DNA of 64,000 bases from Leptolyngbya sp. NIES-2104 (GTDB lineage Bacteria > Cyanobacteriota > Cyanobacteriia > Leptolyngbyales > Leptolyngbyaceae). The stretch covers positions 3,100,001-3,164,000 of the forward strand of contig NZ_BBWW01000001.1 in NCBI RefSeq assembly GCF_001485215.1. Direction: 5' to 3'. Position numbers and translations under genes: made by a program. The notes below the pieces were generated by a model. That model was not told the DNA's origin. It did no database searches and saw only the letters and a list, made by a program, of their open reading frames with translations. Positions 6,494 to 25,915 of this stretch are shown piece by piece; positions within the stretch are counted from its first letter, which is position 1, and each line of letters opens with the position of its first letter.

Positions 6494-6530
6494 ATTGCCA
6501 AACGGCAAATAATCATTGCCAAACGGCTAA
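6494..6530. promoter_or_regulatory. Two further TTGCC-N4-GGC palindromes
   Basis: ATTGCCAAACGGCAA at 6494-6508 and ATTGCCAAACGGCTAA at 6515-6530 follow the stop of the HTH gene. They share the half sites of the palindrome at 6131. Spacing between centres is about 21 bp, or two helical turns, which suits cooperative binding by a dimeric regulator. They may control the genes from 6679 onward. Confidence 0.5.
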
Positions 6531-6678
6531 ACAGAGTCTTACTGTAATTCTGGCTAGAGCCTTTTCAGAAACAGCAGGTGGGTTGCCGCTCAGCGTTTCT
6601 GATTTCGGCTCTTTGCTTTTTCATCAACCTTTTCAACCACAACCCAATTTCAAGATCTAGCACGAGTAATCGTGCCCA

Positions 6679-7032
6679 ATGGTGATGGCAACTCCTAGTG
6701 AGCAACCAGAATCTCAGTTTTCTCGGTTAAATTTGCCGATGTTACAGGCTAAAGAGTTCGGTGGACTTGCGCTGCCCGCCGACTTTCCCAACACGATTAG
6801 CTTACCGAAGTATCCAGTGGGTTCTCGATGCCGCTGGATTCCCACGCCTGCTACCGATTGGGGAATTGTTATTGGGCAGACTTATATTCCCAGCAGGGCA
6901 GAGGCAGCATTGACACAGTGGGCTTGGTCGTACCTGCTGTTACTCGATGCCGATAGCCCTTCGCGGCAGTGGCTTGTGGCGGATTGGGTTGATGAAGCAG
7001 ACCTAGAGTTTTTTCCTACTCAACCCTCATGA
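6679..7032 (+). CDS. Hypothetical protein of the accessory block
   Basis: This 117-residue protein has no motif I can name. It is rich in Trp and Pro in its second half (SRCRWIPTPATDWGIVIGQTY and WAWSYLLLLDADSPSRQWLVADWV, in pieces), suggesting a small beta-rich fold. Its stop overlaps the start of the next HTH gene by four bases (ATGA), so the two are translationally coupled. No signal peptide or membrane segment is seen. Confidence 0.55.
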   Translation: MVMATPSEQPESQFSRLNLPMLQAKEFGGLALPADFPNTISLPKYPVGSRCRWIPTPATDWGIVIGQTYIPSRAEAALTQWAWSYLLLLDADSPSRQWLVADWVDEADLEFFPTQPS

Positions 7033-7373
7033 GTCGTCCCCCCAATCAACGCCCACTTGGAGAACCGGAGCGATCGCTGTTGCGTTTATACGCCAACTGT
7101 CAATGGTCGATCGCCCATCCCCGCCAACTCTACCAGGAGTACGCCTTCACCTACGACCAACTGGCACTCATCGCTGGGTGTAGTTTGCCGACGATGACGC
7201 GCTGGATGAACCGCGGCCAAGAACCCCGCTTGCTGAAGGACGTTTACACTCGTCGCTTGGGAGAGTTTGACTTCCTGCTGCACCATTACCACCAGATTCC
7301 GCCCGAAGTGTGGGAGGCAGTCTGCCCACTGCCACCGCGACTGCGAGCAATTCTCTTCCCAAACCCAGAGTAA
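7029..7373 (+). CDS. Small helix-turn-helix protein, relative of the one at 6157
   Basis: The 114-residue protein has a helix-turn-helix at about residues 42 to 63 (YDQLALIAGCSLPTMTRWMN). Its C-terminal half (RRLGEFDFLLHHY, then a Pro-rich IPPEVWEAVCPLPPRLRAILFP) recalls small DNA-binding proteins on cyanobacterial plasmids and islands. It overlaps the preceding gene by four bases. A 20-bp palindrome follows ten bases after its stop. It could be a transcriptional regulator or a partition or transfer accessory factor; the sequence does not decide. Confidence 0.6.
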   Translation: MSRPPNQRPLGEPERSLLRLYANCQWSIAHPRQLYQEYAFTYDQLALIAGCSLPTMTRWMNRGQEPRLLKDVYTRRLGEFDFLLHHYHQIPPEVWEAVCPLPPRLRAILFPNPE

Positions 7374-7382
7374 AGCGTACAA

Positions 7383-7402
7383 TTCCTATCAAATGATAGG
7401 AA
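7383..7402. repeat. Palindrome TTCCTATCA-AA-TGATAGGAA
   Basis: A perfect inverted repeat with 9-bp arms and two central bases lies just after the HTH gene ending at 7373. There is no T-run, so it looks more like a protein-binding site than a terminator. Confidence 0.6.
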
Positions 7403-7541
7403 CCTGCCTTCACCCCTTGCCTGTCCAGTACGAGCGATCTATTGTTACCCACAAGCTGCGGTTAATCTCAGCCTTGATTACCGTCGCCCCCATCACCCCC
7501 ACCCCTATTCCCCACCCCAGTCGGGCTAACCGTGATCACCG

Positions 7542-8336
7542 ATGCTCACTCTTGATAAATTACTCACCGCCCACTCGACGCTCAAACAGCGCAATGGCAC
7601 TCAAATCAATGCTCAACTGCGACAGTTGCAGCAGCACATCCTCGCCCAACTGCACGCCCTGCAACAGCAAGAAGAGATATTGGTGGCGGACGAATACGAA
7701 CTGCTAGACCCGATTCAAGACCATCTTGCCCGCGATGCTCGATCGCTGACAGGGACAGATGCGTTTCAAGCGTTCGTGCGATCGCTGTTCATTGAGACGG
7801 CGGACGAACTGGTCTGCCGCTACCTTGCCACCCAGATTGATCCAGACCCCACGATTTGGCGCTTGCACCAGTTGAAAGAGCCACTCCAGATTCACTGCAC
7901 CCAGCCATTCTGCGAGGAAGTGTTCGACGACGAGGGCATCTCCCACACCTTATATCTGGTGAAGATGGAGGTCCAACTGGGGCGGTGGCGGGATGTTGTT
8001 GATCTTGCCCCCCAACCGCTGATGGAAACCGCTGGTGAGTTCGACTTGCCGCTCTCAGGGTTCAAACAGTGGCTGAAGTTAACTGAGCAGTTGAAAGGGG
8101 CACTGCGGCAGTCGCCGCTTGGCTTCGGCACTCAAGAAACCCAAGGGAACAAGCGGTCTGCTCGGCAAAAAGCGGTTCCTTCGCAACGGGGAGTTGCCCA
8201 AGAGATGGCTTGTGTGCTGATGTTTGTCGGGGAATTGTTTCATTCCTACACCGTTGCCGATCGCCTGTGGTCACTTCTGTCTGCGGCGCACGGGATGCCG
8301 CAACCGCGATCCTCCCCGCCGCCAACCGCAGAATAG
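7542..8336 (+). CDS. Hypothetical protein of the accessory block
   Basis: This 264-residue protein begins with a long Gln-rich helix, probably a coiled coil (LRQLQQHILAQLHALQQQEE, about residues 27 to 46). An acidic middle region and a VEVQLGRWRDV-like beta part follow, and the C-terminus is Pro-rich and disordered. I do not recognise a family. About 170 bp separate it from the HTH gene upstream. GC content is a little higher here than in the core region, consistent with acquired DNA. Confidence 0.5.
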   Translation: MLTLDKLLTAHSTLKQRNGTQINAQLRQLQQHILAQLHALQQQEEILVADEYELLDPIQDHLARDARSLTGTDAFQAFVRSLFIETADELVCRYLATQIDPDPTIWRLHQLKEPLQIHCTQPFCEEVFDDEGISHTLYLVKMEVQLGRWRDVVDLAPQPLMETAGEFDLPLSGFKQWLKLTEQLKGALRQSPLGFGTQETQGNKRSARQKAVPSQRGVAQEMACVLMFVGELFHSYTVADRLWSLLSAAHGMPQPRSSPPPTAE

Positions 8337-8359
8337 CCTATTTTTATTCCCGACAAGCT

Positions 8360-8884
8360 ATGACATCACTCCCCTTAAATCCCGATGGCGATCGCCGCGA
8401 TCGTCTCATCTTTGGAAAACCCCTCGATTGGCAGACCCAGGCCGCACAACAGCGACGAGTTAGCTTTGATAAACTGCCCCTTTGCACATTGGAACAGTTG
8501 ATCCAGGAAGGGTTTGTGCAAGCTTCTGAGCAACCGCTCAGCGATCCGGATGCGCTTGAACTGGTTGAGGTTGCCCGATGTTTAAGCCGTCCTACCTTAT
8601 CTGCTTGGGTTGAAGTCTTGGTTAGCCCACCTGCTTGCCAGGAGTGGGTGCGGATTACGGCAATCCGGTTCGAGGGCATGATTACACCTGTAGAGCGATC
8701 GTTCTTTTGGCGATCGTTTTACCACGTTCGCGCCTTAGAAATGACCCCTCGATTGCTGCGGGCAACGTTTGATTCTGCCGCCCTGCTCTTCGTCTCGCAT
8801 CCCGTCGTGGCGTATCAAGACGTAGTGCCGTGGGATTTATCAGAACCTGGAGCTGACCATGACCCACGCCTTACTCACGGATAA
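8360..8884 (+). CDS. Hypothetical protein of the accessory block
   Basis: From ATG 8360 the protein has 174 residues. A longer open frame upstream to 8210 only shadows the previous gene. The sequence is soluble and mixed, with LVEVARCLSRPTLSAWVEVLV and a C-terminal SHPVVAYQDVVPWDL, and I cannot assign it to a family. It follows the preceding gene by 23 bp and overlaps the next small frame by 26 bp, so it looks like part of an operon. Confidence 0.5.
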   Translation: MTSLPLNPDGDRRDRLIFGKPLDWQTQAAQQRRVSFDKLPLCTLEQLIQEGFVQASEQPLSDPDALELVEVARCLSRPTLSAWVEVLVSPPACQEWVRITAIRFEGMITPVERSFFWRSFYHVRALEMTPRLLRATFDSAALLFVSHPVVAYQDVVPWDLSEPGADHDPRLTHG

Positions 8885-9005
8885 CGAGTCAGCATCAGCA
8901 GTGGCGGTTCTTTCGGAGTTGCGCCCTGCACTAATCGTCTCTCAACGGCTTGAGTGTCGACTGGATGATTGCAGCCTTGCCCGCTTGATTAGGAGAATCG
9001 CATGA
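8859..9005 (+). CDS. Possible 48-residue protein between two coupled genes
   Basis: ATG 8859 opens a 48-codon frame that overlaps the end of the previous gene by 26 bp and stops in the ATGA that starts the next gene at 9002. It would read MTHALLTDNESASAVAV and end in LARLIRRIA. The overlap at both ends and the lack of any other frame in the 118-bp gap support a real small gene. It could also be a leader that only couples translation. Confidence 0.4.
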   Translation: MTHALLTDNESASAVAVLSELRPALIVSQRLECRLDDCSLARLIRRIA

Positions 9006-9544
9006 ACCCAAACAACTCTTTGCCTGAAGAACCTTCCTCAGAGCCGCTCAACTGGTTCCTGTCCGAAGCGCGTGTGCAAGAATTAATTCGTATCGAAGAA
9101 GAGTGTGGCTGCGACATTGGCGCAGGGCGGAACTGGGGCACCCAGATGGGGATGTTCCTGGAAGATCCTGTGGAAATGGAGTGCTTAGCGCAACTGCGCG
9201 ATTGGATGCTGGGTGAATTCCGCTTGATGCTGAGCGAGTGGGAGTTGGGCCGAATCACCGACACGCTCCACTCCGTCGGGCGGCAACTATTGATTGAACG
9301 CTTTCGCCAACCGCCGCCGGAAACCCAGGAACGGCTTTGGCACCTGTTTGAGCGATCGCAAGCGACGCGATGGGATCACTCAAGCGTGGCAATCTCTCGT
9401 GCCAACGACGCTCGGACTGAAGTGCGGGCGGTGATGGCGAGAACGCTGACTTCAGCCGATTGGCAAGCGTTGACGCAAGCAGCAGTCTGGACGCTAGAAC
9501 AATACTTGTCCACTGGGCAAGCAGAACTGAACCGAGAGGACTAA
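9002..9544 (+). CDS. Hypothetical protein of the accessory block
   Basis: This 180-residue acidic, mainly helical protein has no motif I can name. It has two tryptophan-containing helices near its N-terminus and an internal EEECGCDIGAG loop. ATG 9002 overlaps the stop of the small frame before it. It is followed by a 19-bp palindrome. No membrane segment or signal peptide is visible. Confidence 0.5.
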   Translation: MNPNNSLPEEPSSEPLNWFLSEARVQELIRIEEECGCDIGAGRNWGTQMGMFLEDPVEMECLAQLRDWMLGEFRLMLSEWELGRITDTLHSVGRQLLIERFRQPPPETQERLWHLFERSQATRWDHSSVAISRANDARTEVRAVMARTLTSADWQALTQAAVWTLEQYLSTGQAELNRED

Positions 9545-9592
9545 GCGACTCAATCTCGATCGCTGGTTTTGCTTGAGCCGAACGGCTGGAAA

Positions 9593-9611
9593 GTTCGCAA
9601 AAATTGCGAAC
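9593..9611. repeat. Palindrome GTTCGCAA-AAA-TTGCGAAC
   Basis: A perfect inverted repeat with 8-bp arms and a three-base centre lies 49 bp after the gene ending at 9544. It lacks a T-run. It may be a regulator site for the gene at 9802 or a weak hairpin. The rest of 9545-9801 shows no gene. Confidence 0.55.
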
Positions 9612-9801
9612 ATTGGTCAAATCTTGCTCAAGTCATTCTCCGGGTAGTCGTTGAGGTTGCGATCAAAAATGAGGGCGTTCTCTATTTCTGAAAGACAGCT
9701 TTTGATCTCGTTGGAGATAGGCGGGCAAGAGTGTGTGAAATCCGTCCTGCTCCGCTCAATGCGCCACTAGCGATCCCTGTATCTGAGATGGAGGCAGCAG
9801 T

Positions 9802-10134
9802 ATGCCACACGATTTCTATTTTGGTCAGAGCCGAGAAATGAGTGCCCTGCACTGGTTGATGGAAAACCGCCCATTGCTGCCGTCGCCCCACGAGGATACG
9901 GTCGAGCTGCTTGTGAAAGCTGCCTGTCGGCAGTGTTTGATCGAAGCATCTTGGAAAGATGCGGCTGCGGTCGAATTGTGCCGGGAACTGATCGATCGCA
10001 CTCATCCTCCAACATCGGCACAAAAATTACTGGAGCGGTGTCAGGCAGGGGAATTAGAAGCGTTTGAGCAAGCCCTTTTGAGACTGCAACAGCAAGTGAT
10101 GGTTGAAATTATGAGGCCGCCCGATGCAGAGTAA
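9802..10134 (+). CDS. Hypothetical protein, last gene of the accessory block
   Basis: This 110-residue protein is all-helical by appearance, with three Cys residues and a C-terminal run ELEAFEQALLRLQQQVMVEIM likely to form an amphipathic helix. I do not recognise it. It is the last gene on this strand before the broken AraC gene. The ribosome site is weak (GGAGG at 9788-9792, somewhat distant). Confidence 0.45.
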   Translation: MPHDFYFGQSREMSALHWLMENRPLLPSPHEDTVELLVKAACRQCLIEASWKDAAAVELCRELIDRTHPPTSAQKLLERCQAGELEAFEQALLRLQQQVMVEIMRPPDAE

Positions 10135-11367: not shown

Positions 11368-12512
11368 TTATACTTCTGGCAACGGCAAGCGCAACCACAG
11401 GGGCAAATGATCGCTGACCTCATGTTCAAACTTGCTGAAAAACGCTTTCTGTTGCGTCTTGCTCATCTGCTCAAGTGGAGGCAGATCTAATGCTTCTCGA
11501 AATAGCTCGACGAAGTTGACAATGCCATAATCAGGTCCGCGCAACTGAGTTCCCATCGTCGCGTTGTCCTTGTACGTCGGTAGGCGATCATCGTGACTGA
11601 ACAAGCCAATCTGATCAAACGTCTCGCTCAACCTAGCGTTCGTGCGAAACTGTGTCTTGTATTGCGGATGAACGTCGAGAAACGGAAAGTTCACGTTCGC
11701 GGTTCTGCCCATCGACTGATTGAACGTTTTGATGTGTGCTTCGATGCGGGGACGGTCTCGTTCCGGGTCATCAAAGTCCAGGTTGAGATCGCCTATCAAG
11801 ATATAGTTCGGGAAGTTGCTCGATCGCTCTTTCACTCTTGCTAGTAACCACTCCATCAGCGCATCGAATTCCTGTCGTCGATCCTCGATGCTGTCCCCGA
11901 AATAGAGATGAGCGTTGACTGCCATAATGTCATACGGGCGTGTGCCAGGATGTCCATTGGTGCGGAAGCTGGCACAGAACGGTTGACGCACGAAGGTGAG
12001 GAATACAGGCAGTTTGATATCGGCTCCTTTACGGAGATTCCCCTGTTCATCGAGATGTGGGGCGATCTCGCTGACGAATTCCGCGCTGTGTTCGATCATC
12101 GTGGTAATCAACTTGGTGCGATCGAAGGAAATATCAGAGACGACATTGCCGCGCTCAATGAGCGATCGGTTATAAAGCCCAAGCGTTCACCGAGTCCTGC
12201 TTCTCAAGGGAATGCACCCGTGACATCGGAAACGACTGCACCAAAGTTGTCACCCATTAGGGATTTGAGATAATCAAAGCCTTCAAGGTCGTCCATGATT
12301 TCCTGCACCGAGAGCAGATCGAACTGTTGGCAAAGCTGCGCGAGGAATTGCCAGGTCGCTTCGTTGCGTTGTTTTCTTGCGCCCAGCTTGCGGATGTTGA
12401 ATGAGGCTAAGACGACCGAACCATACTCACGCTTGGGTAGCCCATATCGGTCTGGATCTTGAGCTAACCGCGTCTTGATTTTTTCCCATTCTGCTGTGGT
12501 AAATTCAGCCAT
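11368..12512 (-). pseudogene. Endonuclease/exonuclease/phosphatase family protein, broken
   Basis: The N-terminal piece (12512 to about 12204) carries VLASFNIRKLG and the catalytic VQEI. The C-terminal piece (12111 to 11368) carries MAVNAHL, GDLNLDF and the SDHLPLW motif, so all metallo-hydrolase motifs of the EEP fold are present. Between them an in-frame TGA follows VTGAFP at 12206, and a frameshift lies near 12165 where GFIYNRSLIERGNVVSD should be read. Two separate lesions make a pseudogene likely. The family includes DNase-I-like nucleases and phosphatases. Substrate is unknown. Confidence 0.75.
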
Positions 12513-12712: not shown

Positions 12713-12752
12713 ACCAGCATCTATTTATTCTGAAGAATAAATAGATGCTGGT
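12713..12752. repeat. Perfect hairpin with 18-bp arms
   Basis: The arms at 12713-12730 and 12735-12752 are exact complements around a TGAA loop. The left arm contains CCAGCATCTATTTATTC. It lies downstream of the recombinase gene. There is no T-run on either side, so a simple terminator is less likely than a recombinase-bound or structural site. Confidence 0.85.
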
Positions 12753-12857: not shown

Positions 12858-13763
12858 CTAATCAGCGTTTTGCAGTGACTTGAGTGCTTGTTTTGCCACC
12901 GTTTCTGCGCGTTGTGAAGTCACTTTTTGATAGCGCAGGGTTGTTTGAATTGATCGGTGTCCCATTAGCGCCCGCAGTTCTTCGATTCCCATCAGTCCCA
13001 CACGCTCAGTTGCAAAGGTGTGCCGGAGATCGTGCAGATGTGCGTCTGCCAGTTCGGGAGCATCTGCGGTCAATTCACACCAGTTATCGTGGGCAGACCG
13101 ATAGCTAAGACGGGAGACTTCCAGCGTGAACGGCTGTTGGGCTGTAAACAGAGCAGAGAATTTGGCGTGGCGATCGTATTTCAGGTAGTAATCGAGAGCG
13201 ACCGCTGCATCTTCGCCATAAAAACACCACCGCTTCCGATTGCCTTTCCCCACGACTTGGAACTTACGCTCGCTCTGGTTCACGTCGCGCAAATCGAGTG
13301 CCAAAAGCTCTGAGATTCTGGCTCCGCTTCCGTGTAGCAGATGTACCAAGGCATTCATGCGGAGATGGTGCTTTACCAACTGGTAAAGCATCTCTAGCTG
13401 CTCTGGGGTGAGGTAGCGAATAATCTCGTCGCTGTCGTGTTCTCCCTTGGCTCGATCCGGCTTCCGCCGCTTCAAGCCGAGAATCGGGTTTGACTTGATG
13501 TAACCCTCTTCGACAGCAAAGTTAAACAGGGATTGGATGATCGCTTGATGGCGATGATGCGTCGTGTAGGCAATGCTTTCTAAGTCGTCGAGATATTCTG
13601 TAATCGCTTGCCGCGTCAGGATCTCAATCGGCATCGAGCCATATTCTTGTAGGAAAGGCAGCAACGTGCATTGATAAGATTTAAGCGTCCCTGGTGCTAA
13701 CCCCTGACGACTCAGAAACGCAGTTGCGACTGTAGCTAAAGATGCAGCGATTTGAGAAGACAT
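12858..13763 (-). CDS. Tyrosine recombinase (phage-type integrase)
   Basis: The protein has an N-terminal SAM-like core-binding domain (LAPGTLKSYQCTLLPFLQEY) and a catalytic domain with the active-site set R (GSGARISELLAL), H-x-x-R (HDLRHTFATE), H (LMGHRSIQTTL) and a Tyr in LRYQKV. From ATG 13763 it has 301 residues; an upstream ATG at 13826 would add a hydrophobic 21-residue extension that I think is not translated. It is divergent from the XRE/zinc-ribbon gene, with 69 bp between them. It is likely the mover of the cassette that includes the VPA1262-like gene. Confidence 0.9.
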   Translation of the reverse strand: MSSQIAASLATVATAFLSRQGLAPGTLKSYQCTLLPFLQEYGSMPIEILTRQAITEYLDDLESIAYTTHHRHQAIIQSLFNFAVEEGYIKSNPILGLKRRKPDRAKGEHDSDEIIRYLTPEQLEMLYQLVKHHLRMNALVHLLHGSGARISELLALDLRDVNQSERKFQVVGKGNRKRWCFYGEDAAVALDYYLKYDRHAKFSALFTAQQPFTLEVSRLSYRSAHDNWCELTADAPELADAHLHDLRHTFATERVGLMGIEELRALMGHRSIQTTLRYQKVTSQRAETVAKQALKSLQNAD

Positions 13764-13832
13764 AATGGGATTATGACCTAGAAATATATTAATCAAACAG
13801 CGTTTTAGATAAACCTTTTTAGACAACGTTTT

Positions 13833-14285
13833 ATGATGACTTTAAATCCAGACCTCGCTCCAAACCCTGAAGAATCGTTGGCAGAGTATGTGCGGCGAAT
13901 CCGTACTAGCTTGAGTCTAAGCCAGAAAGACTTGGCAGATCGAGCAGGAATTCATCTTCAAAGCATCGGCAAAATCGAACGGGGGCAGACCACGCGATTG
14001 AAACACAAAGCCAAAACGGGATTGGCGTTTGCGCTCGGCATCTCAGTTGAGTATTTGGATGCGGCGTGTAAAGGTGTGACGGTCGATGCGATCGAGACGC
14101 TCAAATTCTGTCCCCAGTGCTGGACACCGGGAAGTTTGCCGGATTCGATGTGGACAGCAGTGCGAGCAAAGTATTGCTACGCTTGCGGGACTCAGTTGTG
14201 CGATCGCTGTCCTAATTGCAGCGAGAGGATTCTTTCATTCAAATTTAAGTTCTGTCCTTTTTGCGGCAAAACCTATCAGAAATAA
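13833..14285 (+). CDS. XRE-type HTH protein with a C-terminal double zinc ribbon
   Basis: Residues about 16 to 75 form a Cro/C1-type helix-turn-helix (LSQKDLADRAGIHLQSIGKIERG). The C-terminal half has four CxxC-type knuckles, CPQC, CYACG, CPNC and CPFCG, giving two zinc ribbons. The pairing of an XRE domain with zinc ribbons beside a tyrosine recombinase suggests a regulator of excision or of the adjacent cargo. It sits between the recombinase and the large VPA1262-like gene, 136 bp before the latter. Two GTTTT-containing words at 13800-13830 may be its own operator. The target is not known. Confidence 0.75.
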   Translation: MMTLNPDLAPNPEESLAEYVRRIRTSLSLSQKDLADRAGIHLQSIGKIERGQTTRLKHKAKTGLAFALGISVEYLDAACKGVTVDAIETLKFCPQCWTPGSLPDSMWTAVRAKYCYACGTQLCDRCPNCSERILSFKFKFCPFCGKTYQK

Positions 14286-14420
14286 ATTTTGGTTCTGAAA
14301 GACTGATTAAATCAAAAGGTAGCAAGAACGGTTAAGATGACCCGTTGTCTTTTAACCCGAAGAGAGGCAGAAGAATTTCTATCTGGTGTGTCCTCATAAT
14401 TTACTAAATTTACTAAACCC

Positions 14421-17400
14421 ATGTCTCAGAGTCCTTCTATTCCCAACCTCTCTCAAGACCTTGATACGCTGAGTTGTGATGCCCGACTGACAGAAGTATT
14501 TAGCGGCAACTCGAACGAACCCTGTACACTTTACTTGTGGCTGCTTGAGCGAAAACAAGGTAAGAACGACCGCGACTATCAATTGCTATTCAGTTGGGTG
14601 CTCCCTCGATTAACAGGTGCAGTGGGTCAATGGGGATCATTCAACTCTTTATCCAAATGGAAATCAGCGCCCTATGAGTTTCGCATTCACAGGTTGACAT
14701 TTCTGCATAGCGGTAGTGCGATCACCGATCTTGTAAAACGGCTTTGTCAGGGCGTAACACTAGGCGATGCCTGCAATCAAATGGATCTTCCTCAACCCAA
14801 TGCGCCGCTTGATCAGTTCTGCTTGGGAGTATCGCCTAATCAAATTGCCCAATCTTTTCGGGTTCGTCCAGTGATTTTCTTGGAAACATCGTTTTCGACG
14901 CTGCCGATCTTTGATCAACTCAAGCCACCCACTAGCCCGATCGACGGTATCTCTGCATTTATGGGGTCGCTATACCGCTGCGATAAACTCAATCTTTTCT
15001 GCCAAGCCAACGGTGAACCGCTTCCGCAAGTAGACGAACTAGCTAGACTCTGCCTGAATCACCTTCGGGATGAAACGGGATTAGATTTTCGGAACGCAGA
15101 TAACCAACGACTAGGAAACCTAGAATGGCTCTGCTTTCCGGCTGCTAATCAGCATGAGCAGTCTCAGATTAGCATTGATACTGATGATGCCCCAAATCAA
15201 GTAACAGTCCGAATTACACCTGGAGTGCTTCCAACCTCATCTGCTTTGATTCGCTGTCGCGGCAAGAATGGTGGCGTGATCGTTCTAGATCAATGTCAGC
15301 TTGTACAGGTAGCCGATAGCGCGGAAGTCCCGGTATCGTTTGAAGCAAAAGAACACATCAGTTCCGTTACGGTTACGATCTGGATTCAAGCACCTAATTC
15401 TACGAGCTGGGAGCTTTGGTACGAGCATACATCACCCACACGCTGGCAGGTTAATCTAAGTCTTGGTCTGGCTGGTCCTCAAATCGACTTACCTTCGGAT
15501 TGGCTTGAGAAATATGCCAATTCTAGATTTCGAGACCAGGTTGAGCAATCTCAAAAGTTCAATCAGGTGAATTATGAACAGGTACGGATTGGTAAAACAG
15601 ATACAGAGCCGTGGATTGTGGCGGCAAAGCAAATCCGCGAATTTGCCAGAAAGCTCTTCCCATTCAGCTCAAACGGAGCATTCTTTCCGAGAGGTTGGGC
15701 AAACGACGAGACGGGTCGATTTAGTTTTTTTAAGTGGTTGCAACAACTCACGAACGATCCAACAGCCAGCAAAGTTCTCCTGATTGACCCTTATTTTGAC
15801 AGCGCTGGCATTCATGAACTGATTGCACGAGCGAGTGCAGTTCAGGCAGAGTATGTTGTTCTGACGACCACTCAAATTAAATCAGATGACGATGCACTGG
15901 AGACAGAAGATAGTCTGCAAGTGAGCGATCAATCCTCAGAACCACAACGCGCAATTCGACTGAAGACGGCTTGTAATCAACTACAGGTTTTGTTGAAAAA
16001 TCTTAAATTCCGTCTTTTAGACGTGCGAAGTACAGAAGGGGGAAAGAATCAAATTTTTCATGATCGCTACATTCTTGTCTTCGGTCAAAACGGTGACGTG
16101 AAAGCTGGCTATCATCTTTCCAACTCGATTCAAGGTGCAACGAAGGCTTATCCATTGTTAATCACAACCATTCCAGCAGACGTGCTGCCTCTCGTTGAGA
16201 CTTATATTGCGACTGAATTGCTTCAGCCTTCTAATCCTAGAAGAGAAGTGCAGACAATTTTCTCGACGATTGCTGAGCAAGCAGAATTCTCGATGAGCCA
16301 ACATCCAACAGAAATTGCTGCAATTCCCGATGCAAATCAATTCTTTGCAGCACTTCTCCAAGATGCTAATTTGGCTTATCTAACGTTATCCGATCTGGGT
16401 GAACGCCTTCAAGAACGAGGTCTTTACAATACGACAACACAAGAGTTTGAGTTGCATGAGACAACAGCGAACCGGGTCGAAGCAATGCTTGAGCAATTGA
16501 CTCAAACTTTACTGTGTGCCGATATGGATACTTGTACTCGATTGTGGGCTGGATTGGCAGCATGGTTAGATCGAACTTCAGAGCATGAAGCGTACTTGGC
16601 AAAAATCACATTGGTTGGGGGGGCAGCACTAGCTGCAAAACTGCACACATTTGTATTACAAGTCCCCCATGCCTTAAATCTTCCCGTTCAGTCATACCAT
16701 CCAAATGCTCAAGCCGACGCACTGCAATTAATTGATTTCGTCAAACGAGACTTTGTGAGTGCTGTACGAGATGCCGACCGACTTCTGCAAATTACGAGTG
16801 CCCAGATGTGGCAGATGTGTTTGAACGATCGCGGTCTTCGTTATGCGGCACAAGCATTAATGACTCTAGATTCAGCGAAGTTGATTGACGCGGTTGAGAC
16901 GTTGAACCAGTTTCTGGTAGATGATCGCAGTACTCTAGATTCATTGCAGTTCTGGTCTTTAGCTTATTCCCTCTCCTTCATCATTCAGCAGCTAGTGTGG
17001 CAACTGATTATTAATCGATTTCACAATCAACAGAATGACAATCTGACACAGAAGATGATTGAGAGCAATTTGCCGTCGATTCGCGCGCTCGCAGCCTATA
17101 GCTTGTTTCCATCAAATGCTAATCAGGCTGATCAATCGCCCTTGGATTTGCAAAAGATTTTTACTCGACTGACACAACTTTCAGCGATCGAGAGAATTCA
17201 CGTTTTAGCCGAATGGGGATTTCACCTGAGAATCAAAGCAAATATCAATCGTGGAGAAACTGAGGCAGTTCGAGAACTTCGTTTAGCGGTTTTCAACGAA
17301 ATGCGGCGGAATTTTCCGCAGGAATTATCGCTGGAGGAAGTTTCAAGCATTAGTCGTCGTCTCAGTGGTCCGAGTGAAGGCGCATGGGCAAGAACGACAA

Positions 17401-17927
17401 CGAATAATCTACTACAACCCTTGGTCACTGAGAATAAGTTAAGCCAGGATTGTGTTACTGAAGTTTGGTTTTTAGTTTTATTGAATGGACTCAACAATAG
17501 TCTGATAATTGCTACGAAACAAGACGAGGCAAGCCCTTCTCTTGGCTTTAATCCTGATTTTACGACGGGTTTGGAATTAATTCAGGTGTGTGCAGAAGTA
17601 TTCGCTCGTGCGAGTCCAGAACGTCGCACAAAATGGCTAGCTGAAACTTTAAAGCTTAGTCAAGCCGCGCGACGCTCCCTAAAGCAACCTTTTCTTCGTT
17701 CCCGTCATTATGAGAAATGGGACGCAGCACGAACTTGCGCTCTGTGGTTACAGAGTTTGATGCAACTGGTAGCTCAAACGAACAAATCGAATAATCAGTT
17801 AACCGATGAGGAGTTTGAAGTTCTACAGCAAGCTGCAACACACTTCGATGAAACTTTAGCAATCACTCGCGAAGCAGACTCGTTACCTGACAGAAAGTTA
17901 CTGTGGGAATTTACGGCAAAGCTCTAG
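14421..17927 (+). CDS. VPA1262-family-like large protein with phospholipase-D-like domain
   Basis: This 1168-residue protein starts with an LYLWLLERK region (residues about 37 to 45) typical of VPA1262 N-terminal domains, which occur in large bacterial proteins of unknown function often found on mobile DNA. Residues about 450 to 590 look like a PLD-type nuclease or phosphodiesterase half: KVLLIDPYFDSAGIHELI at about 450, then H547-D-R549-Y in an HxR variant of the HxK motif, and YHLSNSI where GSxN is usual. Only one such motif is seen, so a dimer would be needed for activity. The C-terminal 550 residues are helical and unassigned. No membrane segment is seen. An anti-phage role is inferred from context only. 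Confidence 0.65.
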   Translation: MSQSPSIPNLSQDLDTLSCDARLTEVFSGNSNEPCTLYLWLLERKQGKNDRDYQLLFSWVLPRLTGAVGQWGSFNSLSKWKSAPYEFRIHRLTFLHSGSAITDLVKRLCQGVTLGDACNQMDLPQPNAPLDQFCLGVSPNQIAQSFRVRPVIFLETSFSTLPIFDQLKPPTSPIDGISAFMGSLYRCDKLNLFCQANGEPLPQVDELARLCLNHLRDETGLDFRNADNQRLGNLEWLCFPAANQHEQSQISIDTDDAPNQVTVRITPGVLPTSSALIRCRGKNGGVIVLDQCQLVQVADSAEVPVSFEAKEHISSVTVTIWIQAPNSTSWELWYEHTSPTRWQVNLSLGLAGPQIDLPSDWLEKYANSRFRDQVEQSQKFNQVNYEQVRIGKTDTEPWIVAAKQIREFARKLFPFSSNGAFFPRGWANDETGRFSFFKWLQQLTNDPTASKVLLIDPYFDSAGIHELIARASAVQAEYVVLTTTQIKSDDDALETEDSLQVSDQSSEPQRAIRLKTACNQLQVLLKNLKFRLLDVRSTEGGKNQIFHDRYILVFGQNGDVKAGYHLSNSIQGATKAYPLLITTIPADVLPLVETYIATELLQPSNPRREVQTIFSTIAEQAEFSMSQHPTEIAAIPDANQFFAALLQDANLAYLTLSDLGERLQERGLYNTTTQEFELHETTANRVEAMLEQLTQTLLCADMDTCTRLWAGLAAWLDRTSEHEAYLAKITLVGGAALAAKLHTFVLQVPHALNLPVQSYHPNAQADALQLIDFVKRDFVSAVRDADRLLQITSAQMWQMCLNDRGLRYAAQALMTLDSAKLIDAVETLNQFLVDDRSTLDSLQFWSLAYSLSFIIQQLVWQLIINRFHNQQNDNLTQKMIESNLPSIRALAAYSLFPSNANQADQSPLDLQKIFTRLTQLSAIERIHVLAEWGFHLRIKANINRGETEAVRELRLAVFNEMRRNFPQELSLEEVSSISRRLSGPSEGAWARTTTNNLLQPLVTENKLSQDCVTEVWFLVLLNGLNNSLIIATKQDEASPSLGFNPDFTTGLELIQVCAEVFARASPERRTKWLAETLKLSQAARRSLKQPFLRSRHYEKWDAARTCALWLQSLMQLVAQTNKSNNQLTDEEFEVLQQAATHFDETLAITREADSLPDRKLLWEFTAKL

Positions 17928-18425: not shown

Positions 18426-18631
18426 GTAGTGAGACAAGGTTAAGGAGGAAAGAAATTTGGTCAAAGTCATAAATGGCTATTCAATCACAAATCCATTCAA
18501 GGTGCTTTAGATAAGCGGCTCTTATTGGATAACGCTGCCGAACCATGAAAACAGAATAAAATCCTTGATCCTAGACTAAGTGTCATTTTGTCGTAGATCC
18601 AGAACCATTTGTCACTATACAACCAGAATTT

Positions 18632-18656
18632 GTGGGTTCGACTCCCACCAGGGGCA
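18632..18656 (+). tRNA. tRNA fragment (T arm and 3' acceptor strand only)
   Basis: GTGGG-TTCGACT-CCCAC is a complete T arm and CAGGGGC-A follows as an acceptor strand. No matching GCCCCTG 5' strand is found upstream, and no CCA is encoded. The T arm is identical to that of the next tRNA. I read it as a decayed first member of the array. Confidence 0.55.
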
Positions 18657-18660
18657 CTGT

Positions 18661-18736
18661 GCTTCTGTGGCGAAACGGTAGACGCACTCGATCGAGGGTC
18701 GAGCTTTTGTGGGTTCGACTCCCACCAGAAGTACCA
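18661..18736 (+). tRNA. tRNA-Leu(GAG)-like, short variable region
   Basis: The acceptor GCTTCTG pairs with CAGAAGT, and A plus encoded CCA close the gene. The D stem is GCG/CGC with a Leu-type GGTAGACGC. The anticodon stem CTCGA/TCGAG encloses TCGAGGG, giving anticodon GAG (Leu). The variable region is only five bases (CTTTT), whereas bacterial tRNA-Leu normally has a long variable arm. The T arm is canonical. It belongs to the packed array. Confidence 0.75.
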
Positions 18737-18744
18737 TAGCACAA

Positions 18745-18822
18745 GCACCGAAGGCGGAAGTGGTCTACGCGCACACCCGATAAGTGTGTTACTAGCAGGT
18801 TCGAGTCCTGCTCGGTGTACCA
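18745..18822 (+). tRNA. tRNA-like gene, anticodon GAT (Ile) as read
   Basis: The acceptor GCACCGA pairs with TCGGTGT, then A and encoded CCA. The D stem is GCG/CGC, the anticodon stem CACAC/GTGTG, and the loop CCGATAA, so positions 34-36 are GAT. Position 33 is C instead of the near-universal T, which is odd and may reduce function. The T arm GCAGG-TTCGAGT-CCTGC is canonical. It starts eight bases after the previous tRNA. Confidence 0.7.
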
Positions 18823-18829
18823 AATTTAC

Positions 18830-18901
18830 GAGACGTTGGCATAGTGGCTGTGCATCGGATTTTTAATCCGACTTAGGTAGGTTCGATTCCTACACGTCTC
18901 A
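18830..18901 (+). tRNA. tRNA-Lys(TTT)
   Basis: The acceptor GAGACGT pairs perfectly with ACGTCTC and the discriminator is A. CCA is not encoded (CCT follows). The anticodon stem TCGGA/TCCGA encloses TTTTTAA, giving anticodon TTT. The variable region is CTTAG and the T arm GTAGG-TTCGATT-CCTAC. It starts seven bases after the previous tRNA. Confidence 0.85.
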
Positions 18902-18907
18902 CCTCAA

Positions 18908-18982
18908 GCCCCTATGATGCAACTGGAAAGACATCGCTTACTTAAAATAAGTGTTTTGCTGGTTCGAGTCCAGTCAGGGGTA
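18908..18982 (+). tRNA. tRNA-Leu(TAA)-like, short variable region
   Basis: The acceptor GCCCCTA pairs with CAGGGGT with one A-C mismatch at the inner end. The D stem is ATG/CAT, the anticodon stem GCTTA/TAAGT and the loop CTTAAAA, giving anticodon TAA (Leu). The variable region is again five bases (GTTTT), not the long arm of normal tRNA-Leu. CCA is not encoded. It is the last member of the array. Confidence 0.7.
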
Positions 18983-21025: not shown

Positions 21026-21529
21026 ATGCAAAAGACTCATGCCTTCGCAATTCTCGCCCCAGTCCCAGAGATGCACTTGATTTCTGGATTGGAAGCGATC
21101 GCACTTCAACTCGATTCCGAAGAATCGGATCAATTGCCAAAGGTTGCATTTGGCAGCATGGATTTTGAAGTGTTTGGAGAGGTTGAAAAACTGCGGGGCG
21201 GGAAAGCGGTCGAGATTTTGATTTATGCGTCTCATGCGAAAGGGGATCAACCGTTGCAGCCTGAAGCAACTTGGCGGGGATTATATATCGGGTCTGTCGG
21301 ATCGCGGCGGGGTCGCTATCCTGGAAAGGCAATTTTTCGCCCAAAATCGACGGCAACTGATTCTCCAACTTGGGCAGTCTTTTGGGAGGTGCAAGAATTA
21401 GAACGGCTAAAAACGCCGATTCCGATTAAGAGCTTAAAAGGAAAAGATAAGAAAGCGAATTATCAAACACGATTTATTCCCGAAGGTCCAGTTCTGATTG
21501 AATGTTCGGGCTACACTAGGGGCGCTTAA
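21026..21529 (+). CDS. Conserved cyanobacterial hypothetical protein
   Basis: This intact 167-residue protein has no motif I can name. It appears to be a mixed alpha/beta protein with a Lys-rich stretch (LKGKDKKANYQTRF) near the end. Its 3' end overlaps the 3' end of the integrase remnant on the other strand. It lies in otherwise decayed island-edge DNA, yet its frame is clean, so it is probably under selection. No membrane segment is visible. Confidence 0.55.
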   Translation: MQKTHAFAILAPVPEMHLISGLEAIALQLDSEESDQLPKVAFGSMDFEVFGEVEKLRGGKAVEILIYASHAKGDQPLQPEATWRGLYIGSVGSRRGRYPGKAIFRPKSTATDSPTWAVFWEVQELERLKTPIPIKSLKGKDKKANYQTRFIPEGPVLIECSGYTRGA

Positions 21530-21862
21530 ATTCGATGAATTTTTCCCACAAATCTGCCAGCGAGGTTTTTAGTGGCGCGTTGCCTCGGCTCACATGGAGC
21601 ATGTTCGAGGTCGCTTTGGTCGCAGTACTCAGCGCAGATTGCAGCTTGTACTTCTCCAATGTTTCATCGAACCGCTCAGAATATCTTTCTCGATCTCCCC
21701 AGCTTTGAGTTGGGCAAGACGACGATTCGTCGAGGTATCAATCAAACCCGTCGATCAATAATTCCGCCTACCGTCGTAGCTAAAAACAAGCTGTAAACGA
21801 CCGTCAGAACTCTTAACCTGAACCGTGCCCTTGAACGCTTTTCCTGGAGTGTTTGAGTACAT
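21516..21862 (-). pseudogene. Remnant of an integrase N-terminal arm domain
   Basis: From ATG 21862, preceded by an AGGAG site, the frame reads KAFKGTVQVKSSDGRLQLVF and then TGA where a Leu or similar is expected. It continues STGLIDTSTNRRLAQLKAGE and IEKDILSG. After a frameshift it goes on FDETLEKYKLQSALSTATKA to SLADLWEKFIEFKRP. This matches the arm-binding and core-binding N-terminus of a cyanobacterial tyrosine integrase. The catalytic domain is absent. It points at tRNA-Gly 170 bp away, a common integration target. Confidence 0.7.
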
Positions 21863-22029
21863 CAGAATCTCCTGGGGCGGGGGTTTCAGTCTTACCCCAA
21901 TAAACGACCGGAATCGCCTGAAAAACACCCAAACGCTAGTACTATCATACTAACTTTGCTGCCAAAGAAATATCACCGAGCCTGCTCAAAAGCCCGCGAA
22001 ATCAGGGCTGTGAGAGACTTCTGTTAGAA

Positions 22030-22101
22030 AGCGGGTAACGCGATTCGAACGCGCGACATTCACCTTGGCAAGGTGACGCTCTACCACTGAGCTATACCCG
22101 C
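22030..22101 (-). tRNA. tRNA-Gly(GCC)
   Basis: The acceptor GCGGGTA pairs with TACCCGC. The D arm is AGCTCAGTGGTAGAGC, and the anticodon stem CACCT/AGGTG encloses TGCCA with anticodon GCC. The T arm is CGCGT-TCGAATC-GCG type. It is a standard core tRNA and probably the attachment target of the old island to its left. Confidence 0.95.
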
Positions 22102-22252
22102 ATTTAGTACTTTATCAATATCTCAGATTGGTTTGGAATTGTCAAGCGAGGTTGATAGAAAAGTTGGAAGCACGATCGCAAATCATTCCGTCAAATTCAC
22201 GCCATCAGAGATAAGATTAGTATGAATATTCTTATTGTGATAGCGACATTCA

Positions 22253-22741
22253 ATGGTTCAGTACACCCTGGCTCAAAGCCCCGAAATCATTCTTACAGTT
22301 CCCGGTAAAGATTCGTCAAAAGCGCGAGATAAGGCGATGGATCAACTGATGGAATTGATGGACGAGGGCAAACTGCCGACCGACTTAGCCGATGGATTCG
22401 GTCCACAAAATTTTATTGAGGTCAAAGATCCAGGGAGTCAGCCCGCTAGCGATGAAGATGCAATTAATCAGGCTGTGCAAACTTTGAGTAGCCTTGCCAC
22501 GCTGAAATTGAAAGCACAAGAATCGCGATCGGAAGCCTTTCAAATTCGCAAACAAATTGATGTTCTTTTTACAGACGATCCGGTGACTGAAGAAGAAATT
22601 AACGGACTGAAAGAAGGCTTCAAGGTGCTGAAAAACTACGCACAAACGAATTTAAGATACCGTGAAGCGCGATCGCAAGCCGAAGAAGCGCGATCAATTC
22701 TCGATCGTGCACTGTCCGAGCCTGAAACGAAGAAAAAGTAG
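22253..22741 (+). CDS. Conserved cyanobacterial hypothetical protein
   Basis: This 162-residue, highly charged, mostly helical protein has a C-terminal coiled-coil-like region (LRYREARSQAEEARSILDRA). It has no signal peptide or membrane segment. I recognise the general type as a cyanobacteria-restricted protein of unknown function but cannot name it. It begins the core region after tRNA-Gly. The alpha/beta hydrolase follows after 80 bp on the same strand. Confidence 0.7.
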   Translation: MVQYTLAQSPEIILTVPGKDSSKARDKAMDQLMELMDEGKLPTDLADGFGPQNFIEVKDPGSQPASDEDAINQAVQTLSSLATLKLKAQESRSEAFQIRKQIDVLFTDDPVTEEEINGLKEGFKVLKNYAQTNLRYREARSQAEEARSILDRALSEPETKKK

Positions 22742-22821
22742 CAGAATCCGAACGATCGCGCCCTAGAATTTCTGGGGTCGCTCATACTATGATCAGGTTT
22801 AGTTAAGAAATCTTTACAAGA

Positions 22822-23718
22822 ATGACGACTACTGATCAAGCAAAAACGCTTCCAACTCTGGAAAAACTGACCTGGGAATGGCAAGGGCATTCGATTCAGT
22901 ACACGGTGATGGGTACGGGTCAGCCTCTAGTTTTGGTGCATGGGTTTGGGGCATCGATCGGGCATTGGAGAAAAAATATTCCGGTTCTGGCAGACGCTGG
23001 TTATCAAGTGTTTGCGATCGACCTTCTCGGTTTTGGTGGCTCTGCAAAACCTGCATTGAATTACACCGTCGATCTGTGGGTGGAATTGCTGCGAGATTTC
23101 TGGACTGCGAATATTCAGCGTCCGGCTGTGTTTGTCGGAAACTCGATCGGTGGATTGCTCTGCATGATGGTGTTAGCACAGCAGCCTGAAATTGCCGCAG
23201 GAGGTGTACTGCTCAATCCAGCAGGCGGATTAAATCATCGTCCAGAAGAACTCAATCCACCGCTACGGTTTGTGATGGGGACATTTTCTAAGCTGGTTGG
23301 TTCTAAGCAGTTTGGGGGCTGGATGTTTGATCAGGTGCGCCAAAAGCATCGAATTCGCAATAGTTTGAGACAGGTCTATCGCGATCCGGATGCAATTACT
23401 GATGAATTGGTCGATTTGCTGCATGAGCCGTCTTGCCATCCGGGAGCACAGCAGGTGTTTGCTTCAGTGCTGATGGCTCCTCCGGGACCAAGACCGACGG
23501 AGCTTTTACCGCAGATTCAGGTGCCGCTGTTGGTGATTTGGGGAGAAGCTGATCCGTGGACACCGATCGCGGGATCGAAAATTTATCAATCGCTGGTTGA
23601 ATCTCAGCCTGTCGAATTCGTTTCGATTCCGAATACCGGGCATTGTCCGCACGATGAGCGTCCGGAGGTTGTGAATAACTTGATTGTTCAGTGGCTCGAT
23701 CGACGGTTGGGGAAATAG
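22822..23718 (+). CDS. Alpha/beta fold hydrolase
   Basis: The 298-residue protein has the oxyanion region VLVHGFGASIGHW, a nucleophile elbow GNSIGG, an acid in WGEADPWTPI and the catalytic His in NTGHCPHDE. This is the complete triad of an alpha/beta hydrolase. Its overall pattern is that of cyanobacterial and plastid hydrolases related to pheophytinase and chlorophyll dephytylase, so a chlorophyll-phytol esterase role is possible. The substrate cannot be read from sequence alone. It is cytosolic by appearance. Confidence 0.85.
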   Translation: MTTTDQAKTLPTLEKLTWEWQGHSIQYTVMGTGQPLVLVHGFGASIGHWRKNIPVLADAGYQVFAIDLLGFGGSAKPALNYTVDLWVELLRDFWTANIQRPAVFVGNSIGGLLCMMVLAQQPEIAAGGVLLNPAGGLNHRPEELNPPLRFVMGTFSKLVGSKQFGGWMFDQVRQKHRIRNSLRQVYRDPDAITDELVDLLHEPSCHPGAQQVFASVLMAPPGPRPTELLPQIQVPLLVIWGEADPWTPIAGSKIYQSLVESQPVEFVSIPNTGHCPHDERPEVVNNLIVQWLDRRLGK

Positions 23719-23805
23719 TCAGTTTCACGGAACACCCTTATTGGTTAGAGAGGTTAGTCTCTAGATTGAAATCCTGAAACTCTGCCTAAAACAGTGAGGG
23801 TGCCC

Positions 23806-25718: not shown

Positions 25719-25748
25719 TTCGATTTGCGGAAATAGACCGAGGACGAA

Positions 25749-25784
25749 AAAGAGGAGTTTCTCTATCGTTGGAAACTCCTCTTT
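25749..25784 (-). terminator. Rho-independent terminator of the NYN gene
   Basis: Arms of 13 bp (AAAGAGGAGTTTC and its complement) surround a 10-base loop. On the minus strand the stem is followed by a run of T (CTTTTTCG). It lies 130 bp after the NYN gene. Confidence 0.75.
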
Positions 25785-25885
25785 ACAATACTTAGGATTG
25801 AATATCGCTTAATCACCCTTTGGACTAATGCACCCCGGTTCAGCTTTGCTTACAGTGTAGTAGAACAATATGGGTCAGTAATCGG

Positions 25886-25910
25886 GGGTGTTGCACTGTA
25901 ACACCCTTTT
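25886..25910 (+). terminator. Terminator-like hairpin on the plus strand
   Basis: GGGTGTT pairs with AACACCC around a seven-base loop and TTTTCTATTT follows on the plus strand. No plus-strand protein gene ends here. It may end a small RNA starting in 25790-25880. Confidence 0.45.
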
Positions 25911-25915
25911 CTATT

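What the first reader, a model, noticed from the sequence alone, without database searches (positions are those of the whole stretch)
12858..17927. Recombinase, XRE/zinc-ribbon and VPA1262/PLD-like cassette: candidate undescribed mobile (defence?) system
Three adjacent genes form a compact unit: a tyrosine recombinase, a divergent regulator with four zinc knuckles, and a 1168-residue protein with a VPA1262-like N-terminus and a single PLD-like HxR motif (H547). A giant nuclease-like protein next to its own recombinase and regulator is the typical form of a mobile defence cassette. Its surroundings (IS elements, a helicase remnant, a tRNA array) agree. The defence role is inference; no phage-related evidence is in the sequence.
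Basis: partly seen in the sequence, partly recalled or inferred. Interest (0 to 1): 0.75.

Follow-up and report, generated by a model that had tools for sequence, protein, structure and literature searches.

The report
Defence-like gene beside transposon resolvase module
A large, mobile and possibly defensive protein of untested function lies next to a recombinase-plus-regulator pair that usually belongs to transposons, and relatives of that pair lie in or near CRISPR-guided transposons that were thought to lack such a recombinase.

Summary
The three genes are real but are not one conserved system. The 1168-aa protein is a full-length member of an existing NCBI family of untested function (VPA1262, NF040699). 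Its middle domain has a phospholipase-D fold; H547-D-R549 is invariant in 61 of 61 aligned relatives. It is a stand-alone, patchy gene in mobile, apparently defence-rich settings; a solo defence effector is my best guess, not shown. The recombinase and XRE pair is a separate module: of 45 pair loci, 31 have a Tn3-family transposase within 2.5 kb, and 7 of 13 delimited elements have exact 5-bp target duplications. The window's copy belongs to a group without Tn3 transposase. All six close relatives outside this genome (one genus) lie 0.3-24 kb from Cas12k or V-K-type TnsC/TniQ. One V-K-like transposon end lies between VPA1262 and a tRNA-Leu. So the window probably holds the remnant of a Tn7-like transposon with VPA1262 as cargo. 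The unexpected lead: V-K CRISPR-associated transposons, said to lack a recombinase of their own, may carry this module to resolve cointegrates.

The parts
14421..17927 (+). VPA1262-family protein, 1168 aa: alpha/beta N-terminus (about 1-240), beta-sandwich (about 250-340), PLD-like domain (about 398-615), helical solenoid (about 630-1168)
   Evidence: NF040699 E 9.2e-203, NF040700 7.1e-99; model pLDDT 81.1, pTM 0.63
15573..16295 (+). Residues 385-625, PLD-like domain with D456-P457, H547-D548-R549 and S567-N568-S569
   Evidence: model pLDDT 85.1, pTM 0.80; PDB matches Z 12.1 FAM83, 11.9 SauUSI, 10.2 NucT, 9.7 Nuc; invariant in 61 of 61
12858..13763 (-). Tyrosine recombinase of the transposon resolution module (ORF as listed runs to 13826)
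   Evidence: PF00589 1.7e-20; start by homologues; second copy in own genome, dN 0.064, dS 1.17
13764..13832 (.). Short stretch between the divergent genes; inferred place of the recombination site, no conserved core seen
   Evidence: spacing and alignment of pair loci
13833..14285 (+). XRE helix-turn-helix protein with a double zinc ribbon, 150 aa, partner of the recombinase
   Evidence: HTH_3 7.8e-10, DZR 8.5e-11; dN 0.082, dS 0.92 against the second copy
18582..18621 (-). V-K-like Tn7-type transposon end (tip at 18621, reading to lower coordinates); lead, not proof
   Evidence: only match of TGTANAGNGACAAAT in the own genome, reversed control 0; same spacing of two GACA units as the end-like sequence at L197:11275
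18629..18651 (+). Duplicated 3' end of tRNA-Leu(gag)
   Evidence: direct repeat D1, identical to 18706-18728
18661..18982 (+). Array of four tRNA genes (Leu, Ile, Lys, Leu)
   Evidence: ARAGORN

Best explanation
Two separate mobile things lie side by side. (1) VPA1262 is a stand-alone mobile gene, most likely an anti-phage or anti-plasmid effector: the solenoid and N-terminal parts would sense an invader, and the PLD-like domain, with one HxR half-site per chain, would dimerise into a phosphodiesterase/nuclease or nucleic-acid-binding site. (2) The divergent recombinase and XRE/double-zinc-ribbon pair is a transposon resolution module: the recombinase would resolve cointegrates at a site between the two genes, with the XRE protein as DNA-binding partner. 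It is standard equipment of a group of cyanobacterial Tn3-family transposons; [quoted passage not shown] The window stretch is most likely what remains of such a Tn7-like element beside a tRNA-Leu, with VPA1262 as former cargo. Shown: family, fold, invariant residues, absence of the trio elsewhere, Tn3 association, same-contig V-K association. Inferred: every biochemical step, the defence role, and the remnant reading.
For: Whole-length family match; PLD fold; HDR in 61 of 61. Recombinase and XRE absent around the other VPA1262 loci apart from one 28% recombinase match. PADLOC families matched at 1e-8: 222 by 139 nearest neighbours, 351 by 125 second neighbours, 74 by 139 random cyanobacterial ORFs; 4 of 10 proteins beside cyanobacterial relatives match defence models. 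Tn3 transposase within 2.5 kb in 31 of 45 pair loci, 5-bp target duplications in 7 of 13 delimited elements, inverted ends. Six of six g145 pairs on contigs with Cas12k or TnsC/TniQ at 0.3-24 kb; TnsC and TniQ of L197 match the ShCAST proteins. Single V-K-like end beside tRNA-Leu. Both copies of the pair in this genome are intact with low dN/dS.
Against: No phage assay; VPA1262 matches no PADLOC-DB model. The motif is HxR, and folds known to me as non-catalytic (FAM83, MITD1, TrmB) are among the best matches. The PADLOC comparison counts profile families, not proteins, and its control is cyanobacterial while the loci are mixed. This genome has no Cas12k and no Tn3 transposase; the window has no TnsC or TniQ match and no second end was found; the end pattern was made after seeing the sequence. 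The V-K association rests on one genus.
Confidence: 0.5

Rival explanations
1. One reading: recombinase, regulator and VPA1262 form one mobile defence cassette that the recombinase moves and the XRE protein regulates.
For: The genes are adjacent, XRE and VPA1262 run in the same direction 135 bp apart, and other transposase-free pairs also have conflict-type genes downstream of XRE: Cas12k at L097, TIR-AAA_35 at L098, CHAT-TPR at L180.
Against: The trio is not found again; no conserved neighbour family around VPA1262; the second copy of the pair in the same genome has no VPA1262. Other transposase-free pairs have no such neighbour (L141, L143, L185, L193).
Confidence: 0.12
2. VPA1262 is not a defence effector but a mobile-element accessory or sensor, its PLD-like domain being a catalytically dead binding module.
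For: Four of five plasmid records with it are typed conjugative. The type gene lies in the Vibrio island VPaI-6, which encodes an integrase (PMC1464126, passages). HxR instead of HxK, and FAM83, MITD1 and TrmB among the fold matches.
Against: Strict invariance of H547, D548, R549 and the PADLOC-rich neighbourhood.
Confidence: 0.3
3. The pairs near V-K genes are only nested remnants of Tn3 transposons that jumped into CAST cargo and have no role there.
For: The pair is common in Tn3 elements; [quoted passage not shown] distances to Cas12k run up to 24 kb; the six loci are from one genus.
Against: No Tn3 transposase match in the four g145 loci L195-L198 or in L097, L098; both copies in the window's genome are intact with dN/dS about 0.05-0.09; the window, L096, L097 and L098 form one supported recombinase clade.
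Confidence: 0.45

Closest known systems
VPA1262 family (NCBIfam NF040699 / NF040700; type gene in Vibrio parahaemolyticus island VPaI-6)
   Same: Full-length profile match far above cut-off (675.9 against 325 bits)
   Different: The known type member is from Vibrio; the cyanobacterial branch is a separate supported set. No function is tested for either in what I found
PLD-superfamily nucleases such as Nuc, NucT, BfiI, NgoAVII and SauUSI
   Same: Fold of the middle domain, Z 8.9-11.9; one motif per chain as in Nuc (recalled)
   Different: HxR in place of HxK; large N-terminal part and C-terminal helical solenoid
Tn3-family resolution systems TnpI and TnpS+TnpT
   Same: Tyrosine recombinase; divergent partner gene with a short stretch between, as described for TnpS+TnpT (PMC7157771, passages); next to a Tn3 transposase in 31 of 45 loci
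   Different: The partner is a 150-aa XRE/double-zinc-ribbon protein; TnpT is described as without apparent homology to other proteins. I did not compare the sequences with TnpI, TnpS or TnpT
[quoted passage not shown]
   Same: Relatives of the pair lie by Cas12k with a CRISPR-like array (L097) or by ShCAST-type TnsC/TniQ (L197); the window has one V-K-like end near a tRNA
   Different: The window has no Cas12k, TnsC or TniQ. [quoted passage not shown]
Gamma-mobile-trio and Tsy elements (tyrosine recombinase plus partners)
   Same: Recombinase with a small DNA-binding partner; Tsy has YRec and an HTH protein (PMC10293859, passages)
   Different: Recombinase scores 17.6 bits against 340 for GmtY; no TnsF-like gene was seen at the window locus, though I made no search for it

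Membership tests
VPA1262 family | Score above the curated cut-off over the full profile | tested here: met
   675.9 bits, cut-off 325, profile 2-1025 of 1026
PLD superfamily | PLD fold | tested here: met
   14 PDB chains at E <= 0.001 by Foldseek; Z up to 12.1
PLD superfamily, catalytic members | HxK(x)4D motif | tested here: not met
   H547-D-R549, and F at +7; R549 in 61 of 61
PLD superfamily, catalytic members | Two motifs brought together by dimer or repeat | not testable with these tools
   one motif per chain; no complex prediction on hand
Known anti-phage systems of PADLOC-DB 2.0.0 | Profile match of the big protein | tested here: not met
   no family at E <= 1
Anti-phage defence (function) | Protection against phage | not testable with these tools
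   context only
Gamma-mobile-trio | GmtY recombinase | tested here: not met
   17.6 bits against cut-off 340
Tn3-family transposon (the window locus itself) | Tn3 transposase | tested here: not met
   no PF01526 match in the whole genome; none within 2.5 kb
Tn3-family transposon (the window locus itself) | Terminal inverted repeats of the related elements | tested here: not met
   only chance-length matches of 14 elements' ends to the window
Resolution module of cyanobacterial Tn3 elements | Homologous pair lies inside bounded Tn3 elements | tested here: met
   Tn3 transposase PF01526 1.7e-65, inverted ends, 5-bp duplications in 7 of 13
Resolution module of cyanobacterial Tn3 elements | Site-specific recombination between the divergent genes | not testable with these tools
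   no conserved core in the alignment
TnpS+TnpT / TnpI classes | Sequence kinship with TnpI, TnpS or TnpT | not tested
   no such sequence was fetched
Type V-K CAST (the window locus itself) | Cas12k with TnsB, TnsC and TniQ | tested here: not met
   no Cas12k in the genome; no TnsC or TniQ match in the window; TnsB not tested
Type V-K CAST (the window locus itself) | V-K-type transposon ends next to a tRNA | tested here: inconclusive
   one end-like sequence at 18621 beside tRNA-Leu, no second end

The most novel reading that the evidence does not exclude
[quoted passage not shown] It would be a further resolution type beside TnpR, TnpI and TnpS+TnpT, and would answer how V-K elements handle cointegrates in their native hosts. 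The window carries a relic of it, with a PLD-type effector (VPA1262) as cargo.
Probability: 0.4. Interest if true: 0.8.

Novelty: new variant of a known kind. Interest (0 to 1): 0.6.

Why it matters
VPA1262 proteins occur under 12 phylum labels and have no tested function that I found; fold, invariant residues and context now give a concrete hypothesis. [quoted passage not shown] A recombinase module in or near V-K elements makes that question directly testable; the same passages name cointegrates as a significant drawback for applications.

Tried and rejected
Rejected: the trio as a conserved cassette. Rejected: GmtY membership of the recombinase. Rejected: Tn3 ends still present in the window.

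Led nowhere: single-sequence scans of genome contigs and viral contigs; phage records, no match; E. coli genomes with the Shewanella homologue's DNA, no match; sequence-only PDB searches with the whole protein and with the PLD alignment, no match; viral predicted structures, none at E <= 0.001; an empty-site comparison, because the two blocks conserved in the related genome G389 (window about 6500-10130 and 21503-26000) lie far apart there; a conserved core between the divergent genes; a second transposon end in the window. The whole-protein model matched mostly unrelated helical solenoids in the PDB list, with NucT at rank 48.

Papers: 'VPA1262' gave two papers, on Vibrio islands and epidemiology (passages of one). 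Gamma-mobile-trio gave six; I saw passages of one, and the primary paper is not held, so what I know of it is recalled. Tn3 + tyrosine recombinase + cyanobacteria + TnpI gave eight; passages of two seen. A six-term search on a Tn3 / tyrosine recombinase / TnpS / zinc ribbon / helix-turn-helix / cyanobacteria combination gave one paper, unrelated by its title and abstract. Two or more of CvkR, Cas12k, tyrosine recombinase gave eight; passages of three seen. Cas12k / cointegrate / resolvase / TnsA gave 14; passages of two seen. In the passages seen, none reports this pair in V-K elements. Most subscription journals and bioRxiv are not in the library, so 'not in print' is not claimed.

Limits of counts: left out of the 45-pair count were L140 (contig end), L156-L158 (no recombinase match), L177 (same place as L135) and the short loci L103-L132. 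The 45 include near-identical copies within one genome (G191, G308, G058) and transposase fragments count as present. L196 and L197 begin close to a contig start, so their recombinase side is cut. L195-L198 were assigned to the window's group by XRE identity (67-69%), not by a tree. L015 and L017 are one locus. The invariance of the GxxLSNSxQ and RLGxLE stretches is partly built in, since searched with them; HDR was not a pattern.
Full report
WHAT IS THERE. The three ORFs are at the stated places. The recombinase is a XerC/D-like tyrosine recombinase (PF00589 1.7e-20; XerC model 1.9e-33 but below its cut-off); homologues suggest a start at 13763 rather than 13826. The XRE protein has a helix-turn-helix and a double zinc ribbon with four CxxC motifs. 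The 1168-aa protein matches the VPA1262 family over its length (NF040699, 675.9 bits, cut-off 325; NF040700 331.7 bits, cut-off 80). It has no Pfam family above cut-off and no PADLOC-DB match. The genome holds one copy; 2 of 386 genomes drawn from the phylum have a member, this one and one of the same family.

VPA1262 RELATIVES. Five plasmid records, four typed conjugative; 69 loci in one scan of genome contigs; one viral contig; none in 50,697 phage records. The tree rows bear 12 phylum labels, and one locus is from an archaeal bin (L026); several are metagenome bins, so labels are soft. In a tree of 65 rows the window protein falls in a five-row set with four cyanobacterial relatives (100% SH-aLRT), nearest to plasmid copies of Anabaena cylindrica PCC 7122 and Nostoc sp. 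C052.

NO CONSERVED PARTNER. Among 1271 ORFs around 77 VPA1262 loci (window included, one locus present twice) the window recombinase matches one other ORF (L042, 28%, 2e-7) and the XRE protein none. Clustering found no neighbour family within 4.5 kb in more than 4 loci; those with 4 all come from L030, L035, L044 and L073, of which three are near-copies. Phage_integrase is matched by 2 of 139 nearest and 2 of 125 second-nearest neighbours, the latter including the window's own. GMP synthase is matched by 3 of 139 nearest neighbours.

DEFENCE SETTING. At E 1e-8 the 139 nearest neighbours match 222 PADLOC families, 125 second neighbours 351, and 139 ORFs drawn from 214 in 16 arbitrarily chosen cyanobacterial segments match 74. 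These are counts of profile families, not of proteins, only 25 per scan are listed, and the control is not matched for taxonomy: suggestive only. Of ten proteins beside the four cyanobacterial relatives, four match: a helicase (E 0) and a DUF2290 protein (4e-109) next to the Nostoc copy, an IetA-like ATPase (1e-15) next to the Anabaena copy, and a cytosine methyltransferase (1e-102) two genes from the Symplocastrum copy; six have none, among them the one tested from Myxacorys. The Nostoc record also shows restriction genes further on.

FOLD. The full-length AlphaFold2 model (61-row alignment) has pLDDT 81.1 and pTM 0.63: an alpha/beta N-terminus, a beta-sandwich, a PLD-like domain, and a helical solenoid from about 630. 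The PLD region alone gives pLDDT 85.1 and pTM 0.80. Foldseek gives 14 PDB chains at E <= 0.001. The 50 VIA-align rows shown are, by their titles and my knowledge, PLD-superfamily folds: FAM83 Z 12.1, SauUSI 11.9, NucT 10.2, Nuc 9.7, BfiI 9.4, MITD1 9.3, NgoAVII 8.9, TrmBL2 8.1. H547, D548, R549, D456, P457, G563, S567, N568, S569 and Q571 are invariant in 61 of 61 rows; the stretch around SNS was part of the search pattern, HDR was not. The motif is HxR, and the matches include folds that I know as non-catalytic, so activity is open.

THE RECOMBINASE-XRE PAIR IS A TRANSPOSON MODULE. A second copy lies at C1:4397158-4398582 of the same genome, 81% identical in DNA over almost exactly the two genes (window 12860-14283), without VPA1262. 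Between the copies dN and dS are 0.064 and 1.17 for the recombinase, 0.082 and 0.92 for XRE, without stops. In 386 genomes of the phylum, 20 have an XRE match below 1e-25, two of them partial; the 119 at 1e-3 include many helix-turn-helix-only matches. In G191 (Nostoc sp. TCL26-01 by plasmid lengths and positions) the pair is present four times: three copies of one 4163-bp element at 99.95-99.98% and one place sharing 4.0 kb of it at 99.5%. That element has 76-bp terminal inverted repeats at 83% and a Tn3 transposase (PF01526 1.7e-65). Over 45 pair loci, 31 have a Tn3 transposase match, some of them fragments, within 2.5 kb and 14 do not. Of 13 delimited elements 7 have an exact 5-bp target duplication. 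Of 18 named plasmid stretches looked at, 9 annotate a Tn3 transposase beside the pair. The described resolution types of the family are TnpR, TnpI and TnpS+TnpT, the last with divergent genes and the site between them (PMC7157771, passages). The present pair has that layout with another partner protein; I did not compare the sequences.

PAIRS WITHOUT TRANSPOSASE. The own genome has no Tn3 transposase and the window no Tn3 ends. On the recombinase tree the window, its second copy and both G394 copies form a supported clade (97/92), all without Tn3 transposase; the label needs at least 3 changes on starred branches, so loss or gain happened more than once. Beside this clade lie VPA1262; a Germane-domain gene; Cas12k (1.7e-187) with eight CRISPR-like repeats; and a TIR + AAA_35 gene. 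Other transposase-free pairs lie by a WYL protein and Cas3d (L142, L181), a CHAT-TPR protein (L180), and a PDC-S37-like helicase some ORFs away with a DUF499/HmaC-like gene on the other side (L151). Others do not: L141 (phosphatase-like by eye), L143 (no match), L152 and L193 (PD-DExK / Uma2), L185 and L188 (an Hpt-domain gene and an AAA ATPase). No control was possible, so I claim no enrichment.

THE V-K LINK. A search of the 42 genomes held of the family found the XRE protein in 8. Besides G000 and G394 these are four more genomes of genus g145 (67-69% identity, no Tn3 transposase match in L195-L198) and two at 56% (G398, G430) with Tn3 transposase. All six g145 pairs share a contig with V-K genes, distances from XRE: G394 C92, Cas12k 0.3 kb, TnsC about 30 kb; G394 C89, Cas12k 9.3 kb; G423 C54, Cas12k 24 kb; G424 C9, between TnsC (17 kb) and Cas12k (11 kb); G425 C42, TniQ 13 kb and TnsC 13.5 kb; G427 C3, TniQ 4.8 kb and TnsC 5.3 kb. 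The Cas12k matches used have E 8e-187 or better; the same model also gives weak matches in two control genomes. L197 TnsC and TniQ match ShTnsC (1e-58) and the V-K TniQ (1.4e-61) in the PDB. These five genomes hold 2-6 Cas12k match rows each, some fragments; by my own arithmetic a random point in 6-7 Mb would lie within 25 kb of such genes a few per cent of the time. Against: one genus; TnsC of G424 and G425 only 31-32% identical to that of L197; no element delimited at both ends; G000 has no Cas12k. [quoted passage not shown] TnsA-lacking Tn7-like elements in general often gain a resolvase, and Tn7 cargo is rich in defence genes (PMC8649781, passages).

THE WINDOW AS A REMNANT. At 18621 the minus strand reads TGTATAGTGACAAAT. 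TGTANAGNGACAAAT matches the genome only there (reversed control 0), and the GACA units at 8 and 29 equal those of the end-like sequence at L197:11275, which lies beyond TnsC and a 667-aa ORF that I take by eye for TnsB. A comparable tip lies by tRNA-Cys after the repeats in G394, though without GACA units. In the window the tip lies 40 bp from tRNA-Leu(gag), whose 3' end is duplicated at 18629-18651. The pattern was made after seeing the sequence and no second end was found: a lead, not proof. If right, the stretch left of 18621 with VPA1262 and the pair is what remains of a Tn7-like element.

VERDICT. Most likely an effector of a known but untested family lies as transposon cargo beside a transposon resolution module, whose relatives point to a possible unrecognised part of V-K CRISPR-associated transposons.

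Noticed in passing
L097:7044-11944 (G394 contig C92): Recombinase-XRE pair 0.3 kb from Cas12k, followed by eight CRISPR-like repeats at 72-73 bp spacing and then a tRNA-Cys.
   Followed up: partly
L133:9485-13647, L134, L135, L136 (Nostoc sp. TCL26-01): A Tn3-family element with 76-bp inverted ends: three nearly identical 4163-bp copies with exact 5-bp duplications and a fourth related place.
   Followed up: yes
L141:8531-10158 and L142:8250-9877 (G058): A 1.6-kb recombinase-XRE unit, 99.9% identical at two places of one contig without inverted ends; flanks of the two copies match different sides of the single Picosynechococcus locus L181.
   Followed up: partly
11368-12512: Two minus-strand ORFs with weak endonuclease/exonuclease/phosphatase matches to different parts of the fold; looks like one broken gene.
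   Followed up: no
12713-12752: Perfect 19-bp inverted repeat with a 2-bp gap just past the end of the recombinase gene.
   Followed up: no
L027, L028, L065: GMP synthase is the nearest neighbour in 3 of 139 neighbour slots of VPA1262 homologues; by cluster and length these loci. guaA is a known island site (recalled).
   Followed up: no
G000:C3:249677-250435 and C3:230204-230617: Two TnsC-like matches on another replicon of the own genome, without Cas12k.
   Followed up: no
L180:5040-9350 and L098:7487-14992: Transposase-free recombinase-XRE pairs followed by a CHAT-TPR gene and by a TIR-AAA_35 cluster respectively.
   Followed up: partly
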